Origin: Yinghuangia soli
GTDB taxonomy: Bacteria; Actinomycetota; Actinomycetes; Streptomycetales; Streptomycetaceae
Assembly: GCF_021502675.1 (NCBI RefSeq)
Contig: NZ_JAKFHA010000001.1
Coordinates: 348,317 to 396,844, forward strand
Direction of reading: 5' to 3'
Length of the DNA: 48,528 nucleotides
Every line of letters begins with the position of its first letter. Positions within the stretch are counted from its first letter, which is position 1. Below the pieces are notes generated by a model. That model made no database searches and was not told where the DNA came from. It was given only the letters and a program-made list of their open reading frames with translations. Below are positions 11,157 through 28,499 of this stretch, one piece after another. The translations under genes were made by a program, and so were the position numbers.

Positions 11157-11174
11157 GTGTCCGAGGGGGACTTG
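11157..11174. repeat. Distal attachment-site repeat (relic tRNA-Leu 3' end)
   Basis: The 18 bases GTGTCCGAGGGGGACTTG repeat, in the same orientation and with one G fewer, the 3' end of the tRNA-Leu at 24919-24937. The bases beyond this copy do not continue as a tRNA. This is what a displaced chromosomal tRNA tail looks like after site-specific insertion. The single-base difference may be drift in a copy no longer under selection. Confidence 0.72.
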
Positions 11175-11193
11175 TTCCACACGCCAACCCCAT

Positions 11194-11210
11194 GGAGGCC
11201 TACGGCCTCC
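11194..11210. repeat. Short perfect hairpin
   Basis: GGAGGCC and GGCCTCC flank a three-base loop, 20 bases inside the left end of the island. There is no T tract on either side. It could be a weak terminator or part of the recombination site; the sequence alone does not decide. Confidence 0.45.
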
Positions 11211-11332
11211 TCGTGCTCTGATAGACACGATCCCACGCACCCGAGGCGTCGTCACCGGCACAGATAGCAGTTCACCCATCTGGGTGAGTGATGGATGTCC
11301 GCGGGCTACTCGGCCCTCGGGACTCGCAACCG

Positions 11333-11357
11333 CCTCACCGACTGGAAGCCGGTGAGG
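11333..11357 (-). terminator. Candidate terminator of the defence operon
   Basis: An 8-bp stem, CCTCACCG with CGGTGAGG around a 9-base loop, sits about 74 bases past the ATPase stop codon. It lacks a T tract, as many actinobacterial terminators do. It is the first clear hairpin after the operon. Confidence is moderate because the stem is short. Confidence 0.45.
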
Positions 11358-11430
11358 GAGTGAGGACATCACCGGGACCTCGCTGCCTTCCTCTCCATCG
11401 CTCCGGCGTTCGAGAGGACGTCGACGCCAC

Positions 11431-14400
11431 TCATTCGTCTTCGAAGCCGCTGTCCTCGAACTTCAGTTGGGCGGCGTTCTCCCGGACGGTGCGCACCTGC
11501 TGTTCGGAGAATCCTGCGCTTGCGGCTGCGGTGATTTCGATGCGGACCTCGAGCTCGATGCCATCAGCGGCCTCGAGGTGCGCGAGGATTTCCTGCTGGA
11601 TGTTGGCGAAGTCTGCGGCGGGGCGATTGGGGTTGAGCGTCTTGACGCCCCAGAACCTGCGGGCGACCTTGGTTGCCGCTGGAGCCGGGGGCTGGGCGTC
11701 AGGTCCTGCAAGCGAGGTCGTGGGGCTGGCGCTGGCGGGCGGGGTAGCCACTGAGCCGCTGTTGCCGCCGTCCTGAGCGGCACCCGGAGCATCCGGCGGG
11801 ATGTCGATGACTCGGGAGCGCTGGGCGACCGCGCGGCTCGGCTGAACGAGGAGAGTGTCGTCAGTGACGAAACCGGGTTCGGGTTTGTCGCCGTGGATCC
11901 AGAGGTTCAGGTATTCATCGGTGGCCTGGTCGTAGGCGTCAGCGAGTGCGAAGGCGTCCTGCTGCCACAGGAGGACTTCGGCAGCGCCGAGTACGGCTTG
12001 TTCCAGCACCTGACGGTTGGGCAGTCGCTTGAGGTAGGGGTACTGCGTGTACCACGACCACAGGTCGCCGAACCGTACGTGGCCTTTGTTCCATGCGTTG
12101 GCCAGCGCCCCTTCGAGGGCCATGCGCACGAGCGTTGCCCCAAGTACCGGGGTGACCCAGCCCTTGGCCTTGAGCGCCGCAGTGGCGCGTTCGGCCAGGG
12201 AGCCCCCGTCCTTGGCGACCCGGGTGAAGGAGATTGTCGGCTTCTGGCCGGGCAGTTCGGTCGGGACCAGTGCTGCGGTGAATGCCGTGCGGACGCGGTC
12301 GTCGACGGCCGCATCCAACTGGCGGGCACGGGTTACGGACTGCTTGCGCTGCTGGGGGCTGAGCTCCAGTTCCTCGGCCTCGTCGGCGATGGACCGCCAG
12401 GCCAGGTATTCGCGCGTCACACCTTCCAGTTCAGGGTAGGCCTCACGGTCGGCAGCGACCATGACCAGCATGTTGCGGCGCTGGCGTTGCCCGGTGCCCG
12501 ACTCCAGCAGCAGGCGCTCGGCGAACGATGTGGCCGCGGAGGCATCCTTGCCCCAGGCGTACTTCGGGTGCAGGACCACCAGCTTGAGGACCTCGGAGTC
12601 GGGCACGTCCCCGGTGTCCAGCGGGGCTGCGTGAACCGCGCCGAAAGAAGACTTCGGTTCCCTCTCGGCGGTCTTGACCCGAGCAACGATCGCGGCGTGT
12701 ACGTCAGCCTCGCTGTAGCCGGCGGCACGGTCGGCGGCCACGCGGGAGACTGAGGCCGCCAAGTCGTACCACGACCGGTCGCCATCCTCGTAGAAGTAGG
12801 TGGCGCGCTGACCGAGCAAGGCACGTGCGTCGCCGATGTGGTTGATGACGTCGCCAGGCACGGCTGTGCCCAAACGCAAATGCTGGATGTCCACGCCCTT
12901 GTGGGCCGAGCGCAAGGTCGGGACGGTGGCGATGAACACTGACCGGGCGATGCGCGTGGTCAGCGCGCGCTGGCCGAACGAAGGACGCTCTCGGTCGATC
13001 TGTTTCGGGGTGGAGCCCTCGCCGTCGACGTCCTTGTCCACGACGGGCTTCCAGTTGTCATCGAGGTACTTGGTGATCTCGCTGAACACCTGCGTGTCGT
13101 CGACGGGGACGGTGCCGGGAGTGATCAGCGGGGCTTGGTCGCCGGCGTCCCACAATGCGTTGATGACCACGCTCATCAGGCGAAGTACACCGCGGGTGCG
13201 CTGGAACTTCGGCAGCGTCGACCAGTCTTCGTAGAGCCGGTCGAACAGCTCGGGGTGGATCGGGTAGGCCGCCCGGACACGCTGCTCGTACGCGCCGGTC
13301 GTCGTCTCACGGGGGAAGAATCCCGTGTTCTCCTGGTAGTACTTCACGTACTGCTTGGCCACCGCGGCAATGTCCGCCAGTGCTGCCGCATCGGGCTCTT
13401 CGAACAGGCGTCGGCGCACGATCTCGAAGGACTCGATGTTGTTGGCCGGCCGCCAGTCGTCGGCGTTGCGGCCGATGACCTGCTGCAACGCCTCCAGGGC
13501 CACGTGCCCGTTGGGGCCACCGACCTCAAGCGCCGATCCGCCGCCCCCGTTGTCCAGCGAGTCCGAGGCGGGAATGGAGACGACGACCATGACGCCCGCG
13601 ACGGACTTCGCCATCTCGGTCAGATGCTGGGCGAAAGTGTGCTGCGTGGCGAACGTCCCGCCGGGCAAGTCGTCGCGGCCCACCAGTTGGCGGGCGTACG
13701 CCACCCACTCGTCGATCAGGATCAGCACACTCTCGCCGCCTGCGACGATGTCGCGTACAACGGCGTCCAGGGCATCGCCCGGATCTGTGCCAGTCCTGTC
13801 GGCCTCGGCGACGCGGTCGAATGCTGCCCGGCCGCCGAGCTGCCAGGCCAGCTCACCCCACACCGTGCGCACCTGTGTGCCGTCATCCTTGATGATGGGC
13901 TGGCTCGGGGAGAGCTTCGTGCCCACCAGGGTCACACGCTTGACTCGCAGGGAGCTCAGGGGGTTGCCCTCACTTGCCGGCATGCAGTCGTGCACGATGT
14001 CCTGCACTGCCGGAGGCAGGGAGCTCGTTGTCAGGCCCTCGGCGAACAGGTGGTACAGGGCCAGCATCGAGTGGGTCTTGCCGCCGCCGAACTGGGTCTG
14101 CAGGTTTATCACCGGGCTGGCCCCGGCGTCCCCGGAGATGCGCTTGAGCGCACGGGTCAGCAGGTCGGACAGGCCGCTGGTCAGATAGGTGCGCGCGAAG
14201 AACTCCGTCGGATTGAGGTACTCCGGCGCGGCAGTGAGGCCGTTGGCCACGGCGAAAAGGTCGGCGGCGAACTCCGCTGCCGAGAACTGCCCGCGGATCA
14301 CGTCGGCGTGTGGCTTGACGACCTCCCGCCACGGCTTGATCGCCGTACCGGCTTGCATGCCGGTCACCTTGACCGCCTGTGACTCACGGGCCACACGGTT

Positions 14401-14844
14401 GCGGGTCTGCTTCTCGAAGACCTCGCGCTGGTGCTCCATACGCACCTTCGCGACCGCATCGGCCTCATCCGTGGCTCCGATGACCGTCAACAGACGCTCG
14501 ATCGTGTCCAACGCACGGTACGTGTCGTTCGAGGAGAACTTCTCCCCGTGATGGGCCGCGTTCGCAGTCTCCCGCAACTCGGAAGCCAATGCGGATTGCG
14601 GACGGGACAGGTCCTTCTCGAAGACCTTCCACCTCTCGGTGACCAAGCGCAGCAAGAAGCGCACGTCGTCCCGCGAGTACGTCTTCGACGTGCCGAACTT
14701 CGCGGCGTCCTCGGCGGCGACCGATTCAACCCAGTCCTTGCCAGCCGGCGCCTGGGCGGACATGCGCATGTCAACCCAGGGACGCATGCCTCCCAACAGC
14801 TGGTCGAAGCCGCGCAGGACCTTCTCGTTGTTCGTCAGCGCCAT
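11431..14844 (-). CDS. DUF499 defence ATPase with N-terminal Swt1/HEPN-like domain
   Basis: A 1137-aa P-loop protein. Residues about 1-130 are helical and contain RETANAAHH, an R-x(6)-H spacing compatible with the HEPN RNase motif, in a Swt1-like arrangement. The DUF499 ATPase core follows: Walker A QFGGGKTHSM near residue 250 and Walker B SVLILIDEW near 375. The C-terminal third carries a lid-like helical region and a proline/alanine linker (about 1035-1075) leading to a small terminal domain with VARRFWGVKTLNP. Its ATG overlaps the methylase stop (TAATG), so the two are translationally coupled. DUF499 proteins occur in defence islands beside DUF1156 methylases and SNF2 helicases. The enzymatic role is not established; ATP-driven control of the complex plus HEPN RNA cleavage on infection is my inference. 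Confidence 0.85.
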   Translation of the reverse strand: MALTNNEKVLRGFDQLLGGMRPWVDMRMSAQAPAGKDWVESVAAEDAAKFGTSKTYSRDDVRFLLRLVTERWKVFEKDLSRPQSALASELRETANAAHHGEKFSSNDTYRALDTIERLLTVIGATDEADAVAKVRMEHQREVFEKQTRNRVARESQAVKVTGMQAGTAIKPWREVVKPHADVIRGQFSAAEFAADLFAVANGLTAAPEYLNPTEFFARTYLTSGLSDLLTRALKRISGDAGASPVINLQTQFGGGKTHSMLALYHLFAEGLTTSSLPPAVQDIVHDCMPASEGNPLSSLRVKRVTLVGTKLSPSQPIIKDDGTQVRTVWGELAWQLGGRAAFDRVAEADRTGTDPGDALDAVVRDIVAGGESVLILIDEWVAYARQLVGRDDLPGGTFATQHTFAQHLTEMAKSVAGVMVVVSIPASDSLDNGGGGSALEVGGPNGHVALEALQQVIGRNADDWRPANNIESFEIVRRRLFEEPDAAALADIAAVAKQYVKYYQENTGFFPRETTTGAYEQRVRAAYPIHPELFDRLYEDWSTLPKFQRTRGVLRLMSVVINALWDAGDQAPLITPGTVPVDDTQVFSEITKYLDDNWKPVVDKDVDGEGSTPKQIDRERPSFGQRALTTRIARSVFIATVPTLRSAHKGVDIQHLRLGTAVPGDVINHIGDARALLGQRATYFYEDGDRSWYDLAASVSRVAADRAAGYSEADVHAAIVARVKTAEREPKSSFGAVHAAPLDTGDVPDSEVLKLVVLHPKYAWGKDASAATSFAERLLLESGTGQRQRRNMLVMVAADREAYPELEGVTREYLAWRSIADEAEELELSPQQRKQSVTRARQLDAAVDDRVRTAFTAALVPTELPGQKPTISFTRVAKDGGSLAERATAALKAKGWVTPVLGATLVRMALEGALANAWNKGHVRFGDLWSWYTQYPYLKRLPNRQVLEQAVLGAAEVLLWQQDAFALADAYDQATDEYLNLWIHGDKPEPGFVTDDTLLVQPSRAVAQRSRVIDIPPDAPGAAQDGGNSGSVATPPASASPTTSLAGPDAQPPAPAATKVARRFWGVKTLNPNRPAADFANIQQEILAHLEAADGIELEVRIEITAAASAGFSEQQVRTVRENAAQLKFEDSGFEDE

Positions 14845-17699
14845 TAGTCGTCTCCCCCGAAGAGCGTCTCAGCCACCGCAACCGAACGGAGCGTAGCCGA
14901 CGTCGCCGACACATCCGCCCACGCGCCGCCCAGGCCATTGAACAGGCCAGCGGTCGGGGCGTCCTGGGATTCCATCAGCTCGTACAAACGGGTGGCCAAC
15001 CGGTTGACCTCGTCCAGACCCACCCGATCCTTCACAGCGGCCATGAGCCGGGCGGCAGTTTCGCGTCCCTCGGCCGCATACGCGCGGGCGAGGTGGCAGG
15101 TGACCTCCCACAACGACAGCCGGTCGTCGTTGGCCGGATCCCACTTCGGGTCGAGGTCCTGGGGCTTGATCAGTGTGACCTTGCCGCCGCCGGAAGTGAG
15201 GACCCCGCCGCGGGCGATCCCTTCCACCGACAGACCGAGCGGAACGGCCAGGGACTCGGCGTCGCCGTAGGGACGGGTGTTCCAGCCATAAGAGCGGTAC
15301 CAGTCCAGGCAGAAGCGGGTGTCGGCATCCAAATCGGCGTCGTGTTCGTTCTGGAGCGCATCGAAGGTCTGGTTGATCAATGCCAGTGCCGTCTTCACGC
15401 TCATGGGCGAACCATCGTCCTCCAGAACCCGCGAGTAGCGGGAAAACACTGCCATGCCAGGACCCAAGATTGTCTGGCGCAAGTCCGCAGGCGCGATCGC
15501 ACCCTCGCGGATCTTCGGAAGGGCTGCTTCCAACTCATTGTGCAGAGCATCAAGGAAACCGGTTCGGTCGGTTGCGGGGGCCGTCGCCTCTCGAGGCCGC
15601 AAAGCCAGCACGATGGATGAAGCGAGCGCATTCATCCCCACGGACATCATGCGATTTGGTAGTTCCGAACGAATAGGCCACGTTGCAGTGATGATCCAAC
15701 CGGACCGGATCATCCCGTCCAGGAAGGTCGACCACCCGGTACTAGCAATACCCTCCTTTTCAAGTTCCGACTGCTTGAAAGCATAGAAGACCGTAATTGG
15801 ATATTCAGGCAATGCGGCGCGCCGGGCCTGCGAGAAGACAAGCTCAAACCCCTTCTCGAAAAAAGATTCCGCTTCCCCCTTTCCACCGTGGCGATATGGG
15901 TTGGCGACGAGTTCCTCCGCCTTAGGCACAAGCATGGTCCCGAAAAGATTCGGGTGAATGTCGCGGAGAGATCGGCGGAGCCAAATATAGAAAAAGTCGG
16001 ACAGGTCAGAGTAGCCAATATTGTCGTAGTATGGGGGGTCAGTGGAGATCAGAGCCCCGTCGTAACTGCGACTCGCTGCGTCTGCCTGCAATGCCGAGCC
16101 GGCAAATCGGGTAATAGCCATACCATCAAGAACTTCAGCTTCCGATGCCACTACAGTGGTAAATCCACCGCCATATTCCTCAAGAGGGGGCGCTTCCGCA
16201 AAGTCCCAAGTCATAGGGATTGCCTGGCGCTGGAATGACCCACGAAGTCGGTCCATTCGAGCTTCCCAGGTGCACATTGTATTATTTCGCGCGGCCATCT
16301 TGCTCAGAGCAAATGAGAGATAAGTAGCGACTGCATCTGCGTAGGCTTCCGCCCCCATGCCACCGTTGTTTAGACGATCGCCGCGATCAATCCCTGCTGC
16401 AATAGCGTCGGCAACAATCCGCTCTCGAGCTTCGCAGATGAGGTCGCTGAAGGTGGTGAGCGCAACGAGCTGCCGATTCGTGAAAAGATCGGCAAAATCT
16501 GTCATTCCGTAAATCGGAGCCTTGATGTCGCGCGGATAATGCCCCAATTGTCCGGCGGGAACCTCTTCGGGACGCTCGACAGTGGCTGCGTCGACATCGT
16601 TATCGTTCGGCCGTAGGTAGACTCTACGCTTATCTTTCTCCGCGGCTATGGCGACCAACTGCTGGCCAATGAGCTTGGCGCGCCCCTCGGATCTGATGTA
16701 CTTCAGGTCAACTGCGCTGCCACACCCTACGCAGTGTGCGCCTTTGCGGCCGACGGTCCCATCATCGGTGCCATTAGGAGCACTCGCAGGATCATGCTCA
16801 ATGTCGAATTCGACCCGGCGCCCACCAGGCACACTTGCGTCATCGACCAGGTTCGGGACGACGTACGCCTCCTTGCCCTTTTTCTTGCCGAGCCACCAGG
16901 AGCCCGCCAAAGGCATCCTGATACCACATGCGGGATTCGGGCAGGTGACTGTGCGCGCCCAGATCCAGGCGATTACCGTAGCCTTTGTCGTTTTGCCAGT
17001 GGGCTTGCCGTCGGGGCCGAGTACCGGTGCAGCTGCACTTGGGTACAGATGCCCGATGCGCTCCTGCGCGTGATCGCGCATCCAGGCGCCGTACCGACGA
17101 ACGTCCTCCGCCAATCCCATGGCACGGGGCCATGGCCCCATCCGCGCCTCAGCGGCCCCGGGGAACACGGGAGGCTGTCCTGCAAACTTCGGCGGGATCT
17201 CGATGAGGGCCTTGTTAATCAACACTGGCACCGGGTTAAGGTCACTGGCATGAGCCTCAAGGCTCAGACGCTGAGCCTCCAAGGGGATCGTGCCGCCGCC
17301 CGCAAAAGGGTCCAAAATCTTCGGTGGTTTACCCCCGGTGCTCCTGAGAATCTCATCGTGAGCCTCTCGGTACAGAGTCTCATTTGAGATGTTTTCCCAC
17401 TTCACCAATCTGCGCATGATTCCATGCAAGCGCTCACGCTCTGCCTTCTGATCCTCCTCGGCGGGGAACAGTTCCGGGTGGCTCGAAGGGTCGTCGACGA
17501 GCTGCGCGAACAGCACCGCTCGGGCGGCAGCAAGAGGGCGACGCGCCCACCACAGGTGCAGCGTGGAAGGGTGACCGTGGCGGATCGACTTCTCGCGGGC
17601 GGACTCAGCGTTAATGTCCTCGAGCGGAAGCGAAACCTCGATCAGCTTGCGTCGAGGTACGGCACCTGATGTGGCTCCGGGCTGCACTGCGGGGTTCAC
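14844..17699 (-). CDS. DUF1156 adenine-specific DNA methylase
   Basis: A 951-aa protein starting at GTG 17699. The N-terminal DUF1156 block (KLIEVSLPLEDIN, HPSTLHLWWARRPLAAARAV) leads into methyltransferase motif I ILDPFAGGGTIPLEA (D130 to G136) and, much later near residue 550, catalytic motif IV DPPYYDNIGYSDLSDFFYIW. Between them lies a large insert with CPNPACGIRM and CVGCG, a likely zinc ribbon. The DPPY form indicates N6-adenine (or N4-cytosine) modification. In this setting it would mark self DNA for the helicase/ATPase system. It is the second gene of a three-gene operon, 84 bases after the helicase and coupled to the ATPase. Its central part is visibly poorer in G+C and richer in A/T-ending codons than its flanks. 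No separate specificity subunit is present. Confidence 0.9.
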   Translation of the reverse strand: MNPAVQPGATSGAVPRRKLIEVSLPLEDINAESAREKSIRHGHPSTLHLWWARRPLAAARAVLFAQLVDDPSSHPELFPAEEDQKAERERLHGIMRRLVKWENISNETLYREAHDEILRSTGGKPPKILDPFAGGGTIPLEAQRLSLEAHASDLNPVPVLINKALIEIPPKFAGQPPVFPGAAEARMGPWPRAMGLAEDVRRYGAWMRDHAQERIGHLYPSAAAPVLGPDGKPTGKTTKATVIAWIWARTVTCPNPACGIRMPLAGSWWLGKKKGKEAYVVPNLVDDASVPGGRRVEFDIEHDPASAPNGTDDGTVGRKGAHCVGCGSAVDLKYIRSEGRAKLIGQQLVAIAAEKDKRRVYLRPNDNDVDAATVERPEEVPAGQLGHYPRDIKAPIYGMTDFADLFTNRQLVALTTFSDLICEARERIVADAIAAGIDRGDRLNNGGMGAEAYADAVATYLSFALSKMAARNNTMCTWEARMDRLRGSFQRQAIPMTWDFAEAPPLEEYGGGFTTVVASEAEVLDGMAITRFAGSALQADAASRSYDGALISTDPPYYDNIGYSDLSDFFYIWLRRSLRDIHPNLFGTMLVPKAEELVANPYRHGGKGEAESFFEKGFELVFSQARRAALPEYPITVFYAFKQSELEKEGIASTGWSTFLDGMIRSGWIITATWPIRSELPNRMMSVGMNALASSIVLALRPREATAPATDRTGFLDALHNELEAALPKIREGAIAPADLRQTILGPGMAVFSRYSRVLEDDGSPMSVKTALALINQTFDALQNEHDADLDADTRFCLDWYRSYGWNTRPYGDAESLAVPLGLSVEGIARGGVLTSGGGKVTLIKPQDLDPKWDPANDDRLSLWEVTCHLARAYAAEGRETAARLMAAVKDRVGLDEVNRLATRLYELMESQDAPTAGLFNGLGGAWADVSATSATLRSVAVAETLFGGDD

Positions 17700-17783
17700 C
17701 TGCTCAGTCTCGTGTTCGATGTGGACTCGATCGTCGCGTCAGCAGGCGTTCGAGCAGATGAACAGTCTAGAGATTCCGAACGG

Positions 17784-20700
17784 TCAGACCGGGTCGATCC
17801 CTCGGTCCCATTCGAGCTGCCACTTGCGGCGCAGATCGTCCACGTACTTGTCCAGCACCAAGTCAGCGAACGGGTCGAGCACGTAACGAACATGGTCGTT
17901 GGACCCGTCCGGGGTGTCCAGGTCGACGGCCACCAACGCGAGCCGGTAATCAGGTTCGGCGTTCTTGGCGTACCCGACCTCGCTCGTCGTGACCGTGAAG
18001 GTGTCGGCACCCAGGACACGGCCCTTGACCTCGATGAAGACCAGGTGGCCGTCAGGCTTGCCTGAACGGATGTCGAAGCCCTTGTTGGAGTGGCTCATCT
18101 CCTCTGGATCCCGTCCGAGCCGGCGTTCCGCGGCCAAGACGGCATCGACGGCTCTGCGCTCGACGACGCTGGTGTCCACGGCGTAGCTGTCTGGGTTGGC
18201 TTGGTTATCCGCAGCGGCAGGGAGGACCGACGCAGGTAGCACCAGTACGGCGCTGATGATCTGTGGCGGGCGTACGCTGACCTGGGCATCGAGGATTAGC
18301 TCGGCCAGTCGGCGTTCGAGTCGGCTCTCCAGGGAGCGGGCACGCTCACGTGCGGTAGCCGGCGACACGCGGATCTTCTTGCCCGCGGCCTGCGCCTCGG
18401 CCAGCTTGATCGCCTCGCCATCCCAGAAATTCAGCTGCGCCTTCAGCCGCTGCTGCACCATCTTCTTGGTTCGCTCGTGAGCAGGGACGACACGCGCGAC
18501 GACATCCGCGCGGTGCTCGGGCAGACCGTGCTGGATCGCCCATGTCTGGGCGACCTGCTCGACGCCGTCCGTTAGCCAGGCGGACGACAGCTCTGCCTCC
18601 ACGGCGAGTTTCAGTGCGGCCTCCTGCTCCGCGTTCAGGTTTGCGGGCAACGACAGATCCAGATATGGCGCGGGGCCCGCAGGCTCTGCGTCTCCGTCCG
18701 GCAGGACGGAGACATACTGAAATCTCTTGCTGATCGGGGCGCCGCGCCCATCGGTGAGCTCCTCCAGCAAGGCGACGACGAGCCGGGGGGTAGTGGCAGC
18801 CCGATCCAGGAGCGTGGCACCGCGAGTCAAGGTGTCGCCGTACCTGTTCAGGATCTCGGTGACGATCGCGTCCATCAGCGGGTGCCCGGGCGCGATGAGC
18901 TCCGCGTCCGGTCGCCCGGGCACCACTGTTGCGGAGGGCTCGAAGGTGATACGCGCGTACCGTGGACTTATGGTGCGCCGAAGTTCGCGCAGTGCAGCTG
19001 GGACGTGAGTCAGCTCGAACCGGTCCTTCTCTCGCCTGGACGCCCGCCCGCCCAGTGCACGCAAGGACTCCATGACGAACGCCTGCACGAAGTGGGGCTG
19101 CATGCGCCGGGCGTGGGCCTCGTCCATCTGCCGGCGCAGCTCGGCGAGATCCTCCAGCCCGATCTCCGGGCTGGCCAGCGCTCGTTCTTTGATTAGCTCC
19201 TTCAGACCATCGGCCACGGACCTGTCGATGACCCGGTCAAGGTGCGCCCGAACTTCAGGCTGCTCGCCGTAGCGGATGGCGCGCATGAGCAGGTCACGCA
19301 GCGGCTCGTCTGCGAAGGCGTGCTCGCCGAGAACATCGAAGACCTTGCCGCCGTACGCGCGGCGCTGCTCCTCGATCTTGGTCAGCAGCCGCCGGAACAC
19401 TTGGCCCTCCCGAGTCTGGGAGGCCACGAGATTCCACAGCCGACAGACTTCCCGCTGGCCGATGCGGTGGATGCGCCCGAACCGCTGCTCGATCCGGTTG
19501 GGGTTCCACGGCAGGTCGTAGTTGACCATCAGGTGCGCAGCTTGCAGGTTCAGGCCCTCGCCAGCAGCGTCGGTGGCGATCAGGACGTGGCAGCGCGGGT
19601 CGTTGGTGAATCGGGTGCGAATGTCCCGACGCGCCTGGCGTGGGGTGCCGCCGTGGATGGTGACGACGGCATCCTCGTCACCACCCAGCAAGGTGGTGAT
19701 GCGGCTGGCGAGGTAGCCCAGGGTGTCGCGGTGCTCGGTGAATACGATGATCTTGTGGGGGGCCTGGTTGGCCCCGCCCAGACCGTTTTCGCGAGCCTTG
19801 AGAACAAGGGAGCGCAGCTCCTGCCACTTGCGGTCTTCGCCCGATGCACGCACCTGCTCGGCGATCTCCTCCAAACGCGCCAAGACGGCGAGCTCGGTAT
19901 CGAGTTCCACAGCCGTCCGTGCCGCGGTGGCAGAGTCCAGGACCTCTTCCTCGAACTGCTCACGCTGCCCGGCGTCCAACTCGTCCGAGTCGAAGTCTTC
20001 TGGCTCGAACGGCATCGTCGCCGCCGCGAGGGCTCCAGCCCCAGCCAGCACCTCATCCCGGTAGGTGCGCAGGCGAGCAGCACGGCGACGGATCGACTGG
20101 TAGATGGCCTCGGGACTGGATGCGAGGCGCCGCTGCATGACAGTGAGGGCGAACCCCACCGTGCGGCGTCGGCCATCGGACTGCTCGGCCCGGTTCATCT
20201 CCGTGCGCACGTACTCGGTGACGTCTTCGTAAAGCCGCATCTCCATCGGGGAGAGGGTGTACTCGACGGTTTCGGCCACCCTTTCGGGGAAGAGGGGCTT
20301 CCCTTCGAAGGTGAGCAGATCCTCCTTGATCATCCGGCGCATCAGACCGTTGGTGTCAGTGGAGTGCACGCCTTGGCGGTACTCGCCGGCGAACCGGTCG
20401 GGATCCAGCAAGGCCAGGAAGGTCTGGAAATTCGCTTCGGAACCCGCGTGTGGGGTGGCCGTCATCAGCAAGAGATGCCGGGTGATGCTGCCGAGCAGCT
20501 GACCCAGCTCGTAGCGGCGGGTGCGCTTGAGCTCGTTGCCGAACCATGAGGCACTCATCCGGTGAGCTTCGTCCACCACGATCAGGTCCCACTCGGTGTC
20601 CGCGAGCAGGTCCCGCCACTCTTCCTTGCGAGCCAGTTGATCCATTCGTGCGATCAGCATGGGATTGCGGCGGAACGGATCACCGTCGCGGTCCGCTTCC

Positions 20701-21269
20701 GCAAGGTCGCGCGTGAGGATCGTCATTTCGATCCCGAACTTCTCCGCCAGTTCAGACTGCCACTGGTCGACCAGCCCGCCAGGGGCGACGATCAGGCAGC
20801 GGCGCACGTCCCCACGCAGCATCAGTTCCTTGAGATACAGGCCGGCCATGATCGTCTTGCCGGCGCCCGGGTCGTCAGCAAGCAGGAAGCGTAGGGAGCC
20901 TGGCTGGCCCAACAGCGTGCCGTAGACGGCGCGAATTTGATGGGGCAGCGGGTCGATGCTGCTGGTCTCCACCGCCAGCATCGGATCCGACAGACCAGCG
21001 TGCCGCATGCGCAGCGCCTCGGCGGCCAGACGGAACTGCGCGGGGTCGGCATCGAACGACCATCGCGACTTCAAGACTTCCGGACGTAGCACGGCGATGT
21101 CGTCAGGGAACAACACCTGATCGGACAAGTGGCCAGCGTCGTTACGGAGCGTGACATGCAGCGCATCGCCGATCGGCGTGACAGCCACCACCGTGGCCTC
21201 CCCCGAAGTGAGGCCAGTCAGCCGAACCCCAGGCTGGACTTCATGGCTATGCAAGAGCCCTACTCCCAT
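17784..21269 (-). CDS. SNF2-family helicase with C-terminal DUF3883 (DrmD-like)
   Basis: A protein of about 1160 aa. The frame opens at TTG 21275, but I prefer the ATG two codons later (21269); neither has a strong ribosome site. The helicase core has Walker A LADDPGAGKT near residue 130-140, DEAH at about 233-236, motif III TATPHAG, and motif VI RFGRIHRIGQ. After a long linker the C-terminal domain has GFDIRSGKPDGHLVFIEVKGR, the DUF3883 pattern, which resembles a PD-(D/E)XK-like fold. The order helicase, methylase, ATPase recalls the set called Hma in PADLOC, and the helicase resembles DrmD of class 1 DISARM. No DrmA, DrmB or phospholipase D gene is present. It probably translocates on unmodified foreign DNA and recruits the other parts. 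It is first in the operon and divergent from the nuclease. Confidence 0.88.
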   Translation of the reverse strand: MGVGLLHSHEVQPGVRLTGLTSGEATVVAVTPIGDALHVTLRNDAGHLSDQVLFPDDIAVLRPEVLKSRWSFDADPAQFRLAAEALRMRHAGLSDPMLAVETSSIDPLPHQIRAVYGTLLGQPGSLRFLLADDPGAGKTIMAGLYLKELMLRGDVRRCLIVAPGGLVDQWQSELAEKFGIEMTILTRDLAEADRDGDPFRRNPMLIARMDQLARKEEWRDLLADTEWDLIVVDEAHRMSASWFGNELKRTRRYELGQLLGSITRHLLLMTATPHAGSEANFQTFLALLDPDRFAGEYRQGVHSTDTNGLMRRMIKEDLLTFEGKPLFPERVAETVEYTLSPMEMRLYEDVTEYVRTEMNRAEQSDGRRRTVGFALTVMQRRLASSPEAIYQSIRRRAARLRTYRDEVLAGAGALAAATMPFEPEDFDSDELDAGQREQFEEEVLDSATAARTAVELDTELAVLARLEEIAEQVRASGEDRKWQELRSLVLKARENGLGGANQAPHKIIVFTEHRDTLGYLASRITTLLGGDEDAVVTIHGGTPRQARRDIRTRFTNDPRCHVLIATDAAGEGLNLQAAHLMVNYDLPWNPNRIEQRFGRIHRIGQREVCRLWNLVASQTREGQVFRRLLTKIEEQRRAYGGKVFDVLGEHAFADEPLRDLLMRAIRYGEQPEVRAHLDRVIDRSVADGLKELIKERALASPEIGLEDLAELRRQMDEAHARRMQPHFVQAFVMESLRALGGRASRREKDRFELTHVPAALRELRRTISPRYARITFEPSATVVPGRPDAELIAPGHPLMDAIVTEILNRYGDTLTRGATLLDRAATTPRLVVALLEELTDGRGAPISKRFQYVSVLPDGDAEPAGPAPYLDLSLPANLNAEQEAALKLAVEAELSSAWLTDGVEQVAQTWAIQHGLPEHRADVVARVVPAHERTKKMVQQRLKAQLNFWDGEAIKLAEAQAAGKKIRVSPATARERARSLESRLERRLAELILDAQVSVRPPQIISAVLVLPASVLPAAADNQANPDSYAVDTSVVERRAVDAVLAAERRLGRDPEEMSHSNKGFDIRSGKPDGHLVFIEVKGRVLGADTFTVTTSEVGYAKNAEPDYRLALVAVDLDTPDGSNDHVRYVLDPFADLVLDKYVDDLRRKWQLEWDRGIDPV

Positions 21270-21752
21270 GGCCAAGCACCGAGAAGCCTCAGCGCTGCGC
21301 TCGATCGTATCGAGTAAGTGCTCTGTTCTGGTCGCAGACTCGGCTGCCGGCTCTGAGCTTGACGTGCTGTGCGGCCGACGGGCGCTCGCAGCGTAGTCCG
21401 CCGCGCCGTTGACGGCGTTGGATCCTGTCAGGCTGGGGCGGGAACGCGGTCACCTTTGATTCGTAGTCCGGGGCTCGCAGACGCGATCGTTCCTTGCCGG
21501 CCGTCGCCGTCGCGGACCAGGCGGGTGATCCGGTGTCCAGCGGTCTCGAGACCGGCCGCCAGGCCACACGCGACCTCTTGCCTCGTCTCCGCCGAGGGCA
21601 AGGACCGTTCCGTGATGACGCTCTGGCGACGGGCCCAGTCGGACGAAATGATCAGTAAAGTTCGGCTGCCGCTACGCACGGCCGCCGAGGGGCGCCGGCA
21701 CGACGGGCCGCGCCTATTAACTCGCGGCGAAACGATCTTAGGGGGCAGTGAA
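21270..21752. other. Divergent region between helicase and nuclease genes
   Basis: About 480 bases between the two divergent defence genes should contain both promoters. The nuclease frame is open upstream to 21369, but that extension is arginine-rich and has no domain character, so I do not include it. A TTGACG lies at 21360-21365 without a convincing -10. No long inverted repeat was seen that could act as an operator. Confidence 0.45.
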
Positions 21753-22799
21753 GTGGCCACTCGAGCGATGCTTCGGGGGTACCTCCTGGAGGAGGCGCTG
21801 GCCTGGCTGTTGCGCCACAGCGGCTACCGGCTGCTCGTGAACGCTGAGCAGGACCCCGAAGAGCTGGTCTCGGACGGGGGGAACCTTCGCGTACGTGGAC
21901 GTGGCGCGGTCCATCAGGTCGACGTGCTCGGCGAGTTCGCCTTCACTCCGGCTTTCTCGCTTCCGGTGCGACTGTTCCTGGAGGCGAAGTACTACCGAAC
22001 GCCGTGCCGGCTGGAGGTCGTGCGCAACGCGCACGGGGTGATCCACGATGTCAACGAGAACTTCATGAACCGACCCGGATCCCGGCCGCGGCGGCGCTAC
22101 CAGTACTCCTACGCCCTGTTCTCCGCGAACGGTTTCACGTCCGACGCACAGGAGTACGCCCTCGCGCACCAGATCTCCTTGATCGACCTTTCCGGGGAGT
22201 CCTTCACCTGGCTACTCGAGGCCATCAAGGAAGCAGCTCAGGACTTGTACACCGCCCAGGTGCAGCACCACGTCACGTCGTTCCCTGTGTCGTGGATGCG
22301 CGCGGAGCTGCGTCAACGCTTGGACACCGGACCCCTGGATCTGCTGCCCGTGGTGAATACCGGAGCACCGGGGTTCCGTGCCGCCGCCAAGTCCCGGCTC
22401 GCCGATTTCGTCGCGTCCCTGACCACCCACCACGAATCCGAGCTCCTGCTCGGCTTCCCCGCAGCGCCGTTCGTTCTCCCGCTGGCCGCGTCCGACGCAC
22501 AGCAGTTCATGAACTACGCGGACACCCATCCGGACCACGTCGTGAGACTGAGGCGGACCGGGCAGAACGGGGACGCCGAGTGGACCGTGTCTCCGCGAGA
22601 GCCGGGCGGAGGCTACTTGCTGACCTTCAAGCTGCCGGAGCAGATCGAGGACTGGATCAGCGACAACGCCGAGAAGGAACGTCAGAGGACGATGCAGATC
22701 AAGTCCGAGTTCCTCGCCGGCATCACGGTCTACCGCATGGTCGGTGCTGGAGTGCGGTCGTACCAGCTGCGGTACGAGCCGAGCGAGCTCCGGCGATAG
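21753..22799 (+). CDS. Mrr-like PD-(D/E)XK nuclease of the defence island
   Basis: I choose GTG 21753, preceded by GGGGG at 21741-21745, giving 348 aa; ATG 21768 is a possible alternative. The N-terminal domain reads as a restriction-endonuclease fold: helix RGYLLEEALAWLLRHSGY with E13/E14, then HQVDVLGEF with D57, then LFLEAKYYRTP with E77-x-K79, and a following helix with a VNENF segment. This is the D-x(n)-E-x-K set of Mrr-type nucleases. The C-terminal 200 residues are unfamiliar. It is divergent from the helicase operon and inside the island, so it is likely the nuclease arm of the system or an extra defence gene carried with it. I cannot assign it to a named family. Its G+C is like the flanking genes. 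Confidence 0.75.
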   Translation: MATRAMLRGYLLEEALAWLLRHSGYRLLVNAEQDPEELVSDGGNLRVRGRGAVHQVDVLGEFAFTPAFSLPVRLFLEAKYYRTPCRLEVVRNAHGVIHDVNENFMNRPGSRPRRRYQYSYALFSANGFTSDAQEYALAHQISLIDLSGESFTWLLEAIKEAAQDLYTAQVQHHVTSFPVSWMRAELRQRLDTGPLDLLPVVNTGAPGFRAAAKSRLADFVASLTTHHESELLLGFPAAPFVLPLAASDAQQFMNYADTHPDHVVRLRRTGQNGDAEWTVSPREPGGGYLLTFKLPEQIEDWISDNAEKERQRTMQIKSEFLAGITVYRMVGAGVRSYQLRYEPSELRR

Positions 22800-23210
22800 C
22801 AGCCTGCCACCAGCCGGATCCATCCGACAGAAGTCTGCGTGATGCACGACCAGCCCGAGTGCCATGGCTACCCGACCTTCGTGGTTCCGACCGCCGCCGC
22901 CGACACCCTCCGGACAGCCACGATCACAGATGGTGTCGGAGCTTGAAGGGGACATCGATGTGATCATCGACTGATTCGCCCGGTTGCGCCCCAACATCGT
23001 GTTCGCCGAACCCGAACCCGTCCTGGGCGAACGCCGCTCGCGCCCTGCTCCACCTGGTGACTCGTCTCCGCACCCGCGCAGCGGAACCATCGCACGCCGC
23101 GCAAGCACCCGAAGACGACCCTCCCGGCGCCGGGCCAAGCGCGGCACAATGGCTTCACGGCCGGACGGAACCGCCGCACCCACGCGAAGCCTGCGTCGAG
23201 GAGCCCCCGG
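22800..23210. other. Gap between nuclease and recombinase relic, no gene seen
   Basis: About 410 bases without a convincing gene. A 76-codon frame at 22984-23214 is mostly arginine, proline and serine and has no family pattern. A short palindromic stretch, GATGTGATCATCGAC, near 22956-22970 is the only structure noticed. The region may be eroded sequence of the mobile element. Confidence 0.5.
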
Positions 23211-24963
23211 ATGAGCCACTCCCAACTGCCCCTCACTCCTGAGTACGTACGCGCCCGGACGCATTCAGGCACGCATGAACACCACCTTCCGAAGCCGGAG
23301 TTGCAGTTCGCCTTCGCCGGGCGGGCCTCCACCGAGGACAACCAGGATCCGGAGTCCTCACGCTCCTGGCAGCTTGGTCGTGCCAAGGCCCTCGTGGGAC
23401 CGGTCGGCGGGGTGATCGTCGCCGAGTACTTCAACGTCGGCCAGACCCGCGCCCTGCCCTGGCCGCGCCGCCCGCGGTCCGCGGCGTTGCTCGACGAACT
23501 GCGCAACTCCGCCCGTGGTTTCGATGCGGTGGTGGTCGGGGAGCCGCAGCGCGCGTTCTACGGTGCGCAGTTCGCCAACACCTCCCGCTGTTCGAGCACT
23601 ACGGCGTGGCGCTGTGGGTGCCGGAGATCGGCGGGCGATCGACGGGGCCAACGAGGCCCACGATCTGATCATGAACATGTACGGCGGGTTTCCAAGGCGG
23701 CGCGCAACCGCGTCCGCATCCGGGTCCGCGCAGACCAGGATCGAGGGACGGTTGCTCAGCGGACGGCCACCGTACGGGTACATGCTCATCGACCTCGGCC
23801 CGCACTCCAACCCGGCCAAGGCCCCCGACGGCCGACGCCTGCACGGCCTCGCCGTCGACCCCCACACCGGCCGGGTCGTCCAGTGGATCTATCGCGAGTA
23901 CCTGGCTGGCCGCGGCCTGTACGCCATCGCCGAGGGCCTTACCCGCGACGGCATCCCGTGCCCGTCCGCCTACGACCCCGGCCGCAACCCGCACCGCACC
24001 AGCAACGCCTGGTCCAAGGGCGCCGTCCGCGGCATCCTCACTAACCCCCGCTACACCGGCCACCAGGCCTGGAACAAACAGCGCAAGGACGAGGTCCTCC
24101 TCGACGTCGACGAGGTCACCCTCGGGCACACCAACAAGCTCCGCTGGAACACCCCCGACCAGTGGATCTGGTCCGCCGCACCCGCCCACGAACCGCTGGT
24201 GTCGATGGAGGACTTCGACACCGTCCAGTCCGTCATGGCGGCCGGCGGGCGCGCCCGCACCACGCGTGACCGGGCCCGCACCGTCCACCCCTACGCGCTC
24301 AAGAGCCGCCTCCGCTGCGGGATCTGCACCCGCAAGATGCAGGGCAACTGGACGAACGACCAGGCGTACTACCCCTGCCGCTACCCCGAGGAATACGCCC
24401 TCGCCAACACGATCCACCACCCCCGCAACGTCCTGCTCCGCGAAGCCGTCCTCCTGCCCCCGCTGGATGCCTGGATCGCCCGGGTCTTCTCACCCGCACG
24501 CATCCGCGAAACCGTCGGCGCCCTCGCCGCGCACCAAGCCCCCGAGGCCCTCGCCGCGCAGACCGCCGCCACGCAGGCCCTGCTCGCCGACTGCGATCGC
24601 AAGCTCGACCGCTACCGCGCCGCCCTCGACACCGACAGCACGCCCGCCGCCAGCATCGGCACCGGATCGCCGAGACCGAAGCCGTCCGCGCCCAGGCCCA
24701 GCACCGCCTGCGCGCCCTCACCACCAAACGGCGGTTCACCCCTGCGGATCCGCCAGATCATCGAGGAACTCGGCGATATGACCACCGCGCTGGTGCGCGC
24801 CGAGCCCGCCGAGAAGGCCCCCGTCTACGCCGGCTTCGGGCTACGCCTCACATATCTTCCAGAACGCAAAGAAGTGCAGATCAGGAGTGATCCTGAACTG
24901 CACTTCATAGGTCAAGAAGTGTCCGAGGGGGGACTTGAACCCCCATGCCCTTGCGGGCACTAG
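23211..24963 (+). pseudogene. Large serine recombinase, multiply frameshifted
   Basis: The translated pieces in three frames together make a Streptomyces-type large serine recombinase. The N-terminal catalytic part has FAFAGRASTEDNQDP with the nucleophile S40 and continues to GFDAVVVGEPQRAFYGAQFANT. PLFEHYGVALWVPEIGG, IDGANEAHDLIMNMYGG and SKAARNRVRIRVR then each lie in a different frame, with changes near 23583, 23637, 23690 and 23730. The long recombinase domain (GRPPYGYM, RYTGHQAWNKQRKDEV) and the zinc-ribbon LRCGICTRKMQG follow in one frame. Two further changes occur near 24660 and 24745. At least six lesions within 1.2 kb mean it is dead unless the reads are poor here. Its frame runs into the adjacent tRNA gene (GGLEPPCPCGH). 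The start shown is the ATG at 23211; 23515 is only an internal frame. Confidence 0.85.
24919..24937. repeat. Proximal attachment-site repeat inside tRNA-Leu
   Basis: The 19 bases GTGTCCGAGGGGGGACTTG cover the T-arm 3' half and acceptor 3' strand of the tRNA. They match the repeat at 11157-11174 except for one extra G. This copy keeps the tRNA intact, the usual outcome when an element brings its own tRNA tail. Confidence 0.72.
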
Positions 24964-25003
24964 CACCTCAAGCTAGCGCGTCTGCCTATTCCGCCACCCG
25001 GAC
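24920..25003 (-). tRNA. tRNA-Leu (anticodon GAG)
   Basis: An 84-nt class II tRNA folds completely by eye. The acceptor GTCCGGG pairs with CTCGGAC (one G-T). The anticodon stem CTAGC/GCTAG closes the loop TTGAGGT, giving anticodon GAG for CUC and CUU codons. The long variable arm is TGCCC/GGGCA with loop GCAA. The T-arm is GGGGG, TTCAAGT, CCCCC. The discriminator is A and no CCA is encoded. Its 3' end is the insertion site of the neighbouring island, and the recombinase relic's frame overlaps it. Confidence 0.96.
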
Positions 25004-25288: not shown

Positions 25289-28200
25289 TCAGTAGGTTTT
25301 GCCGTTGTAGCACTTGGCGACGGTCTGGCCGGTGGCTGCGGACCAGGTGAGTGTGCCGTTGGCGAAGTACTGGGTGCGGGTTCCTGGGGTGCTGCCGTCG
25401 TACTCGCGGGTGTTGGGGAGGCCGAGGCAGCTGTTGTGGGTGCCGATGGACTGGTACTTGGCCCAGATGCCGCCGTGGATGGGGATTGTGTCCGTCTTCG
25501 AGGAGGCGGCGTAGTCGGTGTACGCGGCGCCGCGCTCGTAGAGGACGTATTGGGCCTGGCCGCCCGGGGTGGTCAGGACGTCGGTGGTTGCGACACCCAT
25601 GTTCGTTGGGGAGAAGACCTGGTTGAACGCGTGCGGCATCATGTGGGCGCCGGCGCTGGGGCCCCACGTGATGACGCCGCCTTCGAAGCGCTGGATGACT
25701 CCGCCGTTGACGGGCATCTCTTCCCAGGTCGAGAAGCCCAGCCAGCCGGAATCCCAGCCTTGGGTGGCCCACTTTTCGCCGACGGCGCCGCGGATGATCT
25801 GGGCGTCCGTCTGCGGGCTCCAGAAGATCGCGCCGTTCTGGAAGACCTGGTAGCTGCCGCGGCCGCTGCCGGCGGGCATTTCGTCGGTGAGCGGGAAGCC
25901 CAGCCAGAAGCCGTTGTGCATGCTGCCCTGCCAGCGGGAGCCGATGGCGCCGTGGACCTCGTGGACGCCGGTTTCCGGGCTCCAGACGAGGAGGCCGCGC
26001 TGGAAGCTGCTGTACCGGCCGCCCGCCGCGGTGCCCGCATAGGCGCGCTCGTAGTCTTCCGGGTAGCCGAGGAAGCCGGTGGGGCCGCCGAGCTGGAGCC
26101 AGCGCGTGCGGATGCCGCCGTGGACCTCGCCGACGCCGCTCTTGGGGCTCCAGTAGATCGAGCCCCGCTCGAATTCGGAGACGCGGCCGATGCCGTCGCC
26201 GACCGGCAGTTCGTCGGTCGTCGGCAGGCCCAGGAAGCCCGTCGGGCCGCCCAGCTCCTGCCAGCGTGCGTAGATGCCGCCGAAGACGAAGGTCGTGGCG
26301 CCGTTCGGTGTGCTGAGGATGGCGCCGTTCTGGAAGCGCTGCATCTGCCGGCCGCCGACGGCTTGCGGGAAGTCGACGGGGTAGCCGAGCCACTGTTTGA
26401 GGGAGTCCCAGCGGGTGCCGATCGCGCCGGAGACCGGGAACGCCTGGCCGGTGTCGCAGGACGATGCGTAGAGGCGTACGAGGGCGAACGTCTGCAGGCA
26501 GCCGGCACCGGACGGGTCTTTGACCGTGTCGCTGGTCGGGTAACCGAATTTTGCCGCGGGATTGCTGGTCCGACGCCATGTGCTCGATATCGTCCCGGTG
26601 AGCGTGCGGGCGCCGGTGGCGGCCGACCACACCAGGGTCTTGTTGCCGAGCGGCAATGCTCCGCCGCCGTCCGCATAGGTGGCCGCCGGTCCGGTCGGGG
26701 GGCCCAGCGGGCCGGTGATTCCGCCGAGGGCCTGGTAGGCCTGGGCCAGGGGGCCATGGATCAGGACGGTGCCGGTGCCGGCGTACGAGTAGTAGCCGAG
26801 GCCGGCGCTGAATTCCCGGACCCAGCCGGTGCCGACCAGGGTGGGGAGACCGAGCGGCGTGCCCATGACCGACGGGTCGGGGAGCAGGCTGACCGCTTTG
26901 ATGATCTCGTCCACGTACTGGATGGACGAGGTCCCGCCCGGGATCGGCGTGCCGTTCTTGTCGAGTGCCGTCACCGTGTAGACGACCGTGGTGGGCGCGA
27001 TCGGGGCCCGGAGCGTTGTCTCCAGGCCGGTGGCGGGGGCGGTCAGGACCGGTGTCAGGTGGTCCTTGTCGGGGCCTGCTGACACCCGCCAGGAGACGAG
27101 GTCGGTGGCGCCGTTCCAACTCGCGGAGATCGGGATCTTGCCCTCGTCGTACGAGGTGGATGCGCCGATGTCGACTGCGTCGAAGCCCGGGGCCGACCAC
27201 GCGGCGCGTTGCGCGCGGTCGATCTCGACGCCTGCCGGGACCTGGCTTTCGAAGACGACCTTGCCCGCGGGGGTGACCTCGGCGACCGCGCCCTTGCCGC
27301 CGAAGGTGACCAGCCGGCTCCCATTGGGGAGGATCTGGTTGCCGCCGGTCCGGACGTCGGAGAGCCCCTCTTCGGGCGCCCACTGCCAGACGAGCTTGGC
27401 GGTCTTGGCGGTCTCGTCGAGCACGTACGAGACCGAGCGGGCGGACGCGGCTGCGTCGTCGTCGAGGAAGGCCAGCCGTCCGGTGGACGGCTCACGGGAG
27501 GCGTCGATGGGTCGGCGCGGCGCGGCGTTGGTACCGGTGAATTCGAACTGGTTCCGTTCGCCGCCCAGGATCCACGTGAAAGCGGACGTGGCCTGGTCGA
27601 GCTTGTAGACCGAACCGGTGGACGAGGCGGAGAGCAGGATCTTCCCGTCGGTGTCGTACGCGGCGGCGTTCAGGCCCACGTAGTCGACATTGGCGATGAT
27701 CGGGACCTGGCTGTCGTCGAAGGGGATTTGAGCGGCACCGGCCGCAAGCGAGGACCACTGAAAGGTCGTCTTGCCGGTGGCCAGGTCGACCTCGTGGACG
27801 ACGCTTTCGAGGACCTTGGCGTCCTTGGCGCCGCCGTGCGGCGTCAAATCGACCGCGGCGAGGCGTTTCATCGTGACGAGCGCCTTGGTCCCGTCCGCAT
27901 TCGTCTGCAAGTGGGACTGGGCGAACGCCTGTTGCGGGATCTGCAACGACTTGAGTGACTGCCAATCGTTGCCCAGGATGTCCCAGTTGTAACCGGACCT
28001 GAAAGCCAGCGCGGGGCGGCCCAGATAGTTGATGACCGAAGGCGCGGAACCGTCCCCGCTGAGCGAGAGCAGTGTGCGGCCGTTGTTGTCGTGGATGAAC
28101 ATGTTCGACGGAACGGGGACGTTGCCGCCGTCCGCATTGCTGCCGAACAGCAGCCCCGGCGCGACGCCTTCGGTCACGCGAGTGGCTATCGGAGTCACCC

Positions 28201-28429: not shown

Positions 28430-28464
28430 GATTGCGTACTACTCCCCGAAGAATGGAAAAGGCC

Positions 28465-28494
28465 ATTCAGCATCCTGCTGGTTGGCACCGTCAA
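28465..28494 (-). promoter_or_regulatory. Promoter of LGFP paralogue A
   Basis: On the minus strand TTGACG (28489-28494) is followed by an 18-base spacer and CTGAAT (28465-28470), about 36 bases before the GTG start. The same arrangement, with the same spacer, precedes the second paralogue. That conservation in otherwise diverged non-coding DNA is the main support. Confidence 0.6.
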
Positions 28495-28499
28495 GAAGG

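What the first reader, a model, noticed from the sequence alone, without database searches (positions are those of the whole stretch)
11157..24937. Helicase-methylase-ATPase defence system packaged in a tRNA-Leu island
The sequence shows a SNF2/DUF3883 helicase, DUF1156 methylase and DUF499 ATPase in one operon, a divergent PD-(D/E)XK nuclease and a serine-recombinase relic, all between copies of a tRNA-Leu 3' end. The three core genes match what I recall as Hma in PADLOC and overlap with class 1 DISARM, but DrmA, DrmB and DrmC are absent. The specific four-gene form with this nuclease may be a new variant.
Basis: partly seen in the sequence, partly recalled or inferred. Interest (0 to 1): 0.85.

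Follow-up and report, generated by a model that had tools for sequence, protein, structure and literature searches.

The report
Known Hma defence system, unrelated nuclease
A Streptomyces-family bacterium carries a known three-gene anti-phage system (Hma) on a small island next to a transfer-RNA gene; the neighbouring nuclease looks like a separate defence gene, and close relatives of the three genes often differ mainly in the part of the methylase that should read the DNA target.

Summary
HmaA (17784-21275), HmaB (14844-17699) and HmaC (11431-14844) form one operon, followed by a PD-(D/E)XK nuclease (21753-22799), a frame-broken serine recombinase and tRNA-Leu; an 18-of-19 copy of the tRNA 3' end lies at 11157.

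The core is Hma, also described as the Type-1 DUF499 BREX-related system, here in its HEPN-fused form. The proposed four-gene variant is not supported: the nuclease was beside Hma in 0 of 25 named relatives and 0 of 19 other family genomes with a nuclease match, and 0 of 34 Hma loci hold it. Its commonest neighbour is an ARMADA type II-like system (15 of 25).

One result goes beyond annotation. In several groups of closely related Hma systems, HmaA and HmaC change little while the target-recognition insert of HmaB is replaced; in two E. coli, HmaB residues 1-450 are identical and the next block differs. A strict test passes in 49 of 89 pairs, and one group shows none. This suggests that HmaB alone sets the target.

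The parts
11157..11174 (+). Partial copy of the tRNA-Leu 3' end (att-like repeat, probable left end of the island)
   Evidence: 18 of 19 aligned positions, one gap, starts at the tRNA 3' end; 4 of 100 shuffled tRNAs scored as high or higher
11431..14844 (-). HmaC: DUF499 AAA+ ATPase with N-terminal Swt1-like HEPN domain, 1137 aa
   Evidence: PADLOC HmaC 809.5 bits; HEPN_Swt1 E 7.5e-27 and DUF499 E 2.5e-24
14476..14814 (-). HEPN_Swt1 domain of HmaC (residues 11-123), with an R-x6-H motif
   Evidence: Pfam PF18731; motif
14844..17699 (-). HmaB: DUF1156 DNA methyltransferase of the DPPY kind, 951 aa, DPFAGGGT at 130, DPPY at 554
   Evidence: PADLOC HmaB 1066.8 bits, DUF1156, motifs
16050..16799 (-). 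Hypervariable part of the HmaB target-recognition insert (residues 301-550). GC of the 300-base steps over it is 0.54-0.61; the lowest step of the gene (0.52, 15744-16043) lies just beside it
   Evidence: identity and GC profiles
17784..21275 (-). HmaA: SNF2 helicase with C-terminal NOV_C domain, up to 1163 aa
   Evidence: PADLOC HmaA 1283.5 bits; SNF2, Helicase_C, NOV_C
17910..18164 (-). NOV_C domain of HmaA (residues 1038-1122) with a PD-(D/E)XK-like FDIRS...EVK motif
   Evidence: Pfam PF13020 E 8.3e-18; motif
21753..22799 (+). Stand-alone PD-(D/E)XK (Mrr-like) nuclease, 348 aa; judged not to be part of Hma
   Evidence: linkage
23289..24973 (+). Frame-broken large serine recombinase (relic)
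   Evidence: matches to the 577-aa recombinase of congener G002 in three frames; Recombinase domain
24919..25003 (-). tRNA-Leu(gag), right end of the island and likely attachment site
   Evidence: ARAGORN; same tRNA with an uninterrupted recombinase in G002

Best explanation
The locus is a complete-looking, ordinary Hma system (Type-1 DUF499 BREX-related system, HEPN-fused form) on a roughly 13.8-kb island at tRNA-Leu(gag), probably brought in by a large serine recombinase that has since decayed. Proposed working: HmaB methylates adenines (inferred from DPPY) at a site chosen by its inserted target-recognition domain, marking self DNA. HmaC (AAA+ ATPase) assembles on unmodified sites, and HmaA (SNF2 translocase with a C-terminal PD-(D/E)XK-type domain) degrades unmodified DNA. 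The HEPN RNase domain on HmaC is a likely last-resort toxic effector. Specificity lies in HmaB alone, so exchanging the HmaB insert re-targets the whole machine. The stand-alone nuclease is an independent defence gene that landed in the same island. Shown here: gene content, domains, motifs, the linkage counts and the insert replacement in relatives. Inferred: every biochemical step, and that replacement changes specificity. The effector roles of HmaA and of the HEPN domain follow the published proposal.
For: PADLOC, Pfam and NCBIfam matches (the NCBIfam matches to its DUF499 and DUF1156 anti-phage models are far below their cut-offs). Published description of the same three genes with HEPN fusion, nested TRD and helicase-nuclease (PMC12839542). 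The two closest relatives keep exactly the three genes. Nuclease unlinked: 0 of 25, 0 of 34, and no same-place pair apart from the window itself among the family genomes. HmaB insert replacement: E. coli L171/L174 HmaA 0.987, HmaC 0.996, HmaB residues 1-450 1.00, then down to 0.36; Planktothrix L167/L168 HmaA 0.994, HmaC 0.987, HmaB down to 0.26 (0.71 over the whole mapped insert); Thermus L157/L159 HmaA 0.98, HmaC 1.00, insert 0.71 with third-position identity down to 0.23. Congener G002 has an uninterrupted recombinase running into the same tRNA.
Against: No activity, methylation or phage data. In one group (Streptomycetaceae-3, 6 members, 15 pairs) the insert is as conserved as the rest, so replacement is not universal. 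By the strict test (insert lower than every 250-residue window of HmaA and HmaC) 49 of 89 pairs pass, and 0 of 15 in that group. HmaA and HmaC also have variable stretches (window HmaA residues 401-450, HmaC 1001-1050), and Rhodococcus HmaA is mosaic too. The GC dip in the window's HmaB overlaps the insert but is deepest just beside it. The island's left boundary rests on one imperfect 18-base repeat, and no clean empty site was found: in the stretches held, the left flank differs in both congeners.
Confidence: 0.78

Rival explanations
1. A four-gene Hma variant: the divergent nuclease is a dedicated component, for example a backup effector acting with HmaA, HmaB and HmaC.
For: Adjacent and divergent, 477 bases apart, inside the same island; intact active-site pattern. 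Auxiliary PD-(D/E)XK nucleases beside BREX and BR systems, Type-1 BR included, are reported as a class.
Against: 0 of 25 named relatives have Hma in the flank held, up to 10 kb; 0 of 34 Hma loci hold it; the two closest Hma relatives lack it. HmaA already carries a nuclease-type domain.
Confidence: 0.06
2. The nuclease is primarily an accessory of ARMADA type II-like systems and this copy is a stray, perhaps still active alone as a restriction enzyme of the Mrr kind. (Compatible with the best explanation; it concerns the nuclease only.)
For: 15 of 25 named relatives and 7 of 18 family-genome loci sit beside ArmC- and ArmD-like genes (the sets overlap in genomes). Of the 7 family genomes with an ArmD-like match at 82% identity or more, 5 have the nuclease next to it.
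Against: 6 of 25 and 11 of 18 loci show none of ARMADA, Pgl or Hma in the stretch held at the cut-off used, and 3 of 25 sit beside PglW/PglX, so it is not bound to one partner. Two of the 11 (L101, L108) show a short ArmD-like remnant at a looser cut-off.
Confidence: 0.6
3. The variable HmaB block is just a fast-evolving region, not an exchanged cassette.
For: Gradual decline in some pairs (for example L078/L148).
Against: Sharp edges with low third-position identity next to identical or nearly identical flanks: E. coli L171/L174, Planktothrix L167/L168, Thermus L157/L159. Inserts and backgrounds disagree: L159/L161 insert 0.98 with HmaA 0.93, while L157/L159 have HmaA 0.98 and insert 0.71.
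Confidence: 0.1
4. The system is a class 1 DISARM or a BREX type 3 relic.
For: HmaA matches DrmD (382.5 bits) and BrxH (332.2 bits) profiles.
Against: HmaA scores 1283.5 bits to HmaA; no separate DrmA, DrmB, DrmC or PglZ gene among the ORFs scanned.
Confidence: 0.02

Closest known systems
Hma (PADLOC, PMC8565338)
   Same: Same three genes; long matches to all three PADLOC models.
   Different: HmaC here also carries an N-terminal HEPN domain outside the PADLOC HmaC match (residues 168-1135); a stand-alone nuclease lies beside the operon. The paper predicted HmaB as m5C; the DPPY motif here favours adenine.
Type-1 DUF499 BREX-related (BR) system, HEPN-fused form (PMC12839542)
   Same: HEPN-DUF499 ATPase, DUF1156 methylase with nested insert, SNF2 helicase with C-terminal PD-(D/E)XK-type domain.
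   Different: Nothing found in the core. The passages and sections read say nothing of insert replacement between near-identical systems.
ARMADA type II (PMC12458937)
   Same: Commonest neighbour of this nuclease family elsewhere: SNF2 (ArmA-like), type IIG/PglX-like methylase (ArmB-like), DruE/YprA-like helicase (ArmC-like), UvrD helicase (ArmD-like) (gene set as in passages).
   Different: Not among the window ORFs scanned. The Streptomyces-type loci also have the nuclease and, where read, mostly a kinase-sized gene, which the passages read do not mention.
BREX
   Same: The paper describes the BR ATPase, methylase and helicase as homologous to BrxC, BrxXI and BrxHII.
   Different: No PglZ, BrxA, BrxB or BrxL match among the ORFs scanned.

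Membership tests
Hma / Type-1 BR system | Three-gene operon of SNF2 helicase, DUF1156 methylase and DUF499 ATPase | tested here: met
Hma / Type-1 BR system | C-terminal PD-(D/E)XK-type domain on the helicase (79% of Type-1 taxa in the paper) | tested here: met
   NOV_C with FDIRS...EVK; activity not tested
Hma / Type-1 BR system | HEPN fused to the ATPase (1370 of 2446 Type-1 taxa in the paper) | tested here: met
   HEPN_Swt1, R-x6-H
Hma / Type-1 BR system | Anti-phage activity and methylation-based self marking | not testable with these tools
   needs phage assay and native-DNA sequencing
Four-gene Hma variant with this nuclease | Nuclease recurrently linked to the core | tested here: not met
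   0 of 25, 0 of 34
DISARM class 1 | drmA, drmB, drmC present | tested here: not met
   no such separate gene among 6 ORFs scanned with PADLOC
BREX | PglZ present | tested here: not met
   no match among the ORFs scanned
PD-(D/E)XK nuclease (21753-22799) | Conserved D ... (D/E)-x-K core | tested here: met
   invariant D57, E77, K79 in 24 sequences
PD-(D/E)XK nuclease (21753-22799) | Fold | tested here: inconclusive
   model pLDDT 67.9; best PDB match 1y88, E 5.1e-3, titled protein of unknown function
tRNA-borne genomic island | Direct repeat of the tRNA 3' end flanking the insert, plus recombinase | tested here: inconclusive
   18 of 19 repeat, 4 of 100 shuffles as good; broken recombinase here, uninterrupted one at the same tRNA in G002; no clean empty site

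The most novel reading that the evidence does not exclude
Hma is a re-targetable machine: the HmaB insert, possibly as two separately exchangeable halves, is the only specificity part and is swapped by recombination among otherwise near-identical systems, while HmaA and HmaC follow whatever HmaB reads. Extra nucleases (this PD-(D/E)XK gene here; an AAA ATPase plus HNH pair in E. coli; HsdR-N-like and Uma2 genes in Planktothrix) are interchangeable passengers.
Probability: 0.6. Interest if true: 0.55.

Novelty: new member of a known kind. Interest (0 to 1): 0.4.

Why it matters
The locus itself adds one more Hma system. The useful outcome is twofold. A tempting four-gene system is made unlikely by linkage counts. 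And natural insert replacement in HmaB gives a concrete clue to how Hma tells self from foreign DNA and which part carries specificity. Five E. coli loci with three uninterrupted core genes carry four distinguishable HmaB inserts, so the idea can be tested in laboratory strains.

Tried and rejected
Rejected: the four-gene Hma variant; class 1 DISARM; a link between HEPN fusion and insert replacement. The last was suggested (replacement in systems with the long HmaC, none in the short-HmaC group L082-L087) and dropped when Planktothrix and E. coli systems with short HmaC (957 and 947 aa, no HEPN-sized extension; not scanned with a HEPN profile) showed replacement.

Led nowhere: the nuclease profile against solved-structure sequences gave one match at E 0.45, judged irrelevant; the nuclease model is of low confidence, and the PDB fold search had no match at E 0.001 or below, best 1y88 at 5.1e-3. 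A plasmid search with the nuclease found one partial match. The paper search for 'HmaB' held 246 papers, and the 20 listed were off topic, nearly all on antibodies. Searches bearing on insert exchange in Hma: and passages of PMC12839542; no report of it was seen, in this open-licence library, and most listed papers were not opened.

Rows set aside: only loci with all three genes were paired (L088-L090 lacked an HmaA hit), and only pairs with HmaA identity above 0.60 or about 0.75 were listed; this dropped 2 of 28 Rhodococcus and 8 of 36 Thermus pairs. L081, L147, L166, L169 and L175 were not in the grouped count. One search fetched 18 of the 24 match rows; left out were the window's own, the second G087 copy, both G106 pieces, the G157:C1 fragment and the G046 fragment. 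One search fetched 15 of the 26 match rows (the window's own and the weaker matches were left out). Of 78 plasmid records with an HmaB match, 21 were fetched and a 22nd is a whole-chromosome-sized record; of 17 E. coli records, 6 were fetched.
Full report
What is there. The window lies on contig 1 of a 9.7-Mb genome in 91 contigs. On the minus strand, HmaA (17784-21275), HmaB (14844-17699) and HmaC (11431-14844) are adjacent and co-directional. PADLOC matches are 1283.5, 1066.8 and 809.5 bits. HmaA carries SNF2 and Helicase_C domains and a C-terminal NOV_C domain with a PD-(D/E)XK-like motif. HmaB carries DUF1156, DPFAGGGT at 130, two cysteine pairs (253, 323) and DPPY at 554. PADLOC names HmaB a DNA-adenine methylase, while the 2021 paper predicted m5C (passage); the DPPY motif favours adenine (established knowledge of the motif, not tested).

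Island. tRNA-Leu(gag) is at 24919-25003. A partial copy of its 3' end at 11157-11174 matches 18 of 19 aligned positions. Of 100 Markov-shuffled tRNAs, 4 scored as high or higher against the left part of the window, so the repeat alone is weak, though it starts exactly at the tRNA end. A serine recombinase lies against the tRNA but is broken: a 577-aa relative matches in three frames. That relative, an uninterrupted ORF, sits at the same tRNA in congener G002 and runs into it, while in congener G001 no recombinase-like ORF was seen next to it (the G001 neighbours were listed as ORFs, not scanned). In both congeners the sequence on the other side of the tRNA is conserved (window 31961 onward) and the island side is not, in the stretches held; in G001 the counterpart of window 176-2560 lies about 23 kb from the tRNA. 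A recombinase-borne island at this tRNA is therefore likely; its exact left end is not proven.

The nuclease. The ORF from 21753 (348 aa) is a PD-(D/E)XK protein by conserved pattern (24 sequences), with a sub-threshold Mrr_cat match, a low-confidence model (pLDDT 67.9) and a weak best match to 1y88. Is it part of Hma? Of 25 named relatives, 0 show HmaA, HmaB or HmaC in the flank held, up to 10 kb and shorter at contig ends. In the family, the nuclease is in 20 of 294 genomes and an HmaC match in 24 of 297. Three genomes besides the window's have both (G021, G087, G131). In G021 and G131 the HmaC match is weak and on another contig; in G087 the places are more than 2 Mb apart. A search of 396 phylum genomes found the nuclease in 2, one of them the window's. 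Of 34 Hma loci (15 from family genomes, three of these without an HmaA hit; 18 from plasmids; one further genome), 0 hold a relative by tblastn at E 1 or by profile. The two closest Hma loci align with the window only over the three genes, up to 21244. Instead, 15 of 25 named loci and 7 of 18 family-genome loci have the nuclease beside ArmC- and ArmD-like genes, 3 of 25 beside PglW/PglX, one beside an ArmD fragment, and 6 of 25 and 11 of 18 beside none of these at that cut-off (the two sets overlap in genomes; two of the 11 show a short ArmD-like remnant).

The partner operon. This fits the published ARMADA type II gene set ArmA-ArmD (passages of PMC12458937) plus a kinase. Of the 7 family genomes with an ArmD-like match at 82% identity or more, 5 have the nuclease next to it. 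I conclude that the nuclease is a mobile defence-island gene, not an Hma subunit.

Insert replacement in HmaB. The window and its two closest relatives have HmaA 0.82-0.92 and HmaC 0.85-0.92 alike, but HmaB residues 301-550 only 0.50-0.67. GC over that stretch is 0.54-0.61 in 300-base steps; the lowest step of the gene (0.52) lies just beside it, so the dip overlaps the insert without coinciding with it. I then collected further groups. In Thermus plasmids L157/L159, HmaA is 0.98, HmaC 1.00 and the insert 0.71, with third-position identity down to 0.23 and immediate flanks at 0.93-0.97. In Rhodococcus plasmids L149/L156 the values are 0.97, 0.95 and 0.54, but there much of HmaB besides the insert has low third-position identity, so a larger piece may have been exchanged. 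In Planktothrix L167/L168, HmaA is 0.994, HmaC 0.987 and HmaB falls to 0.26 at 451-500 while residues 1-350 are 1.00; over the whole mapped insert the value is 0.71. In E. coli, where 17 of 5,426 genomes hold an hmaB-like stretch by a search with the Aeromonas gene, L171 and L174 share HmaB residues 1-450 exactly, third positions included, then drop to 0.62 and 0.36 before recovering; HmaA is 0.987 and HmaC 0.996. Some E. coli pairs differ over both halves of the insert, others mainly over the second, which suggests two separately exchangeable blocks.

Control. I asked whether the insert is lower than every 250-residue window of HmaA and HmaC. 49 of 89 pairs pass: 3 of 3 and 5 of 6 in two Streptomycetaceae groups, 15 of 26 in Rhodococcus, 16 of 28 in Thermus, 1 of 1 in Planktothrix, 9 of 10 in E. 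coli, and 0 of 15 in the third Streptomycetaceae group. Pairs are not independent, some share the same insert (for example L149/L150 and L172/L173), and Rhodococcus HmaA and HmaC vary too. The claim is that replacement is common, not universal.

Meaning. If restriction specificity were held in HmaA or HmaC, replacing the HmaB insert alone should leave the cell's own DNA unprotected. That nearly unchanged HmaA and HmaC coexist with different inserts argues that they follow HmaB. This is inference; no motif was measured. The published model of a sensing, modifying and restricting complex (PMC12839542) is compatible, and variable target-recognition domains in BREX PglX are noted in print (passage of PMC9009780).

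Papers: PMC12839542 (abstract, passages, section 29 and the first part of section 35); PMC8565338, PMC12458937, PMC12255303, PMC10273834 and PMC9009780 (passages only). Verdict: a new member of a known kind, with a testable clue to its specificity.

Noticed in passing
In 4 of 5 loci read upstream a gene of 386-393 aa precedes the operon (a protein kinase in L109, the one scanned); in L111 only a 309-aa ORF stands at the methylase's place. The ARMADA passages read mention neither the nuclease nor a kinase.
   Followed up: partly
window 25289-31777: Two tandem genes, the first scanned with LGFP-repeat and arylsulfotransferase matches and the second 75% identical to it, sit between the tRNA and window 31961; in both congeners the tRNA and the counterpart of 31961 are less than 200 bases apart, so they look inserted in this lineage.
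   Followed up: no
L170-L175 (E. coli): L171 and L174 hold an AAA ATPase plus an HNH gene between hmaA and hmaB (Septu-like, my reading), L170, L172 and L173 only a short ATPase ORF there. L173 and L175 lie beside tRNA-Leu; L175 has a truncated hmaB.
   Followed up: partly
L157-L165 (Thermus plasmids): hmaA is on the opposite strand from hmaB and hmaC in 8 of 9, a Fic-family gene overlaps the start of hmaB in 7 of 9, and small toxin-antitoxin-like and helix-turn-helix genes lie between hmaB and hmaC.
   Followed up: no
L169 (Planktothrix): HsdR-N-like and Uma2-family endonuclease genes lie between the DUF1156 and DUF499 genes.
   Followed up: no
G047:C3, G272:C28, G275:C16: HmaA-like helicases (52-54% identity) whose match ends near residue 1015-1039, before the NOV_C part; G272 and G275 are not among the HmaC matches, so these may belong to another system.
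   Followed up: no
window 8069-10822: One ORF matches O-antigen ligase (Wzy_C), Wzz and ParA-like domains, left of the island.
   Followed up: no
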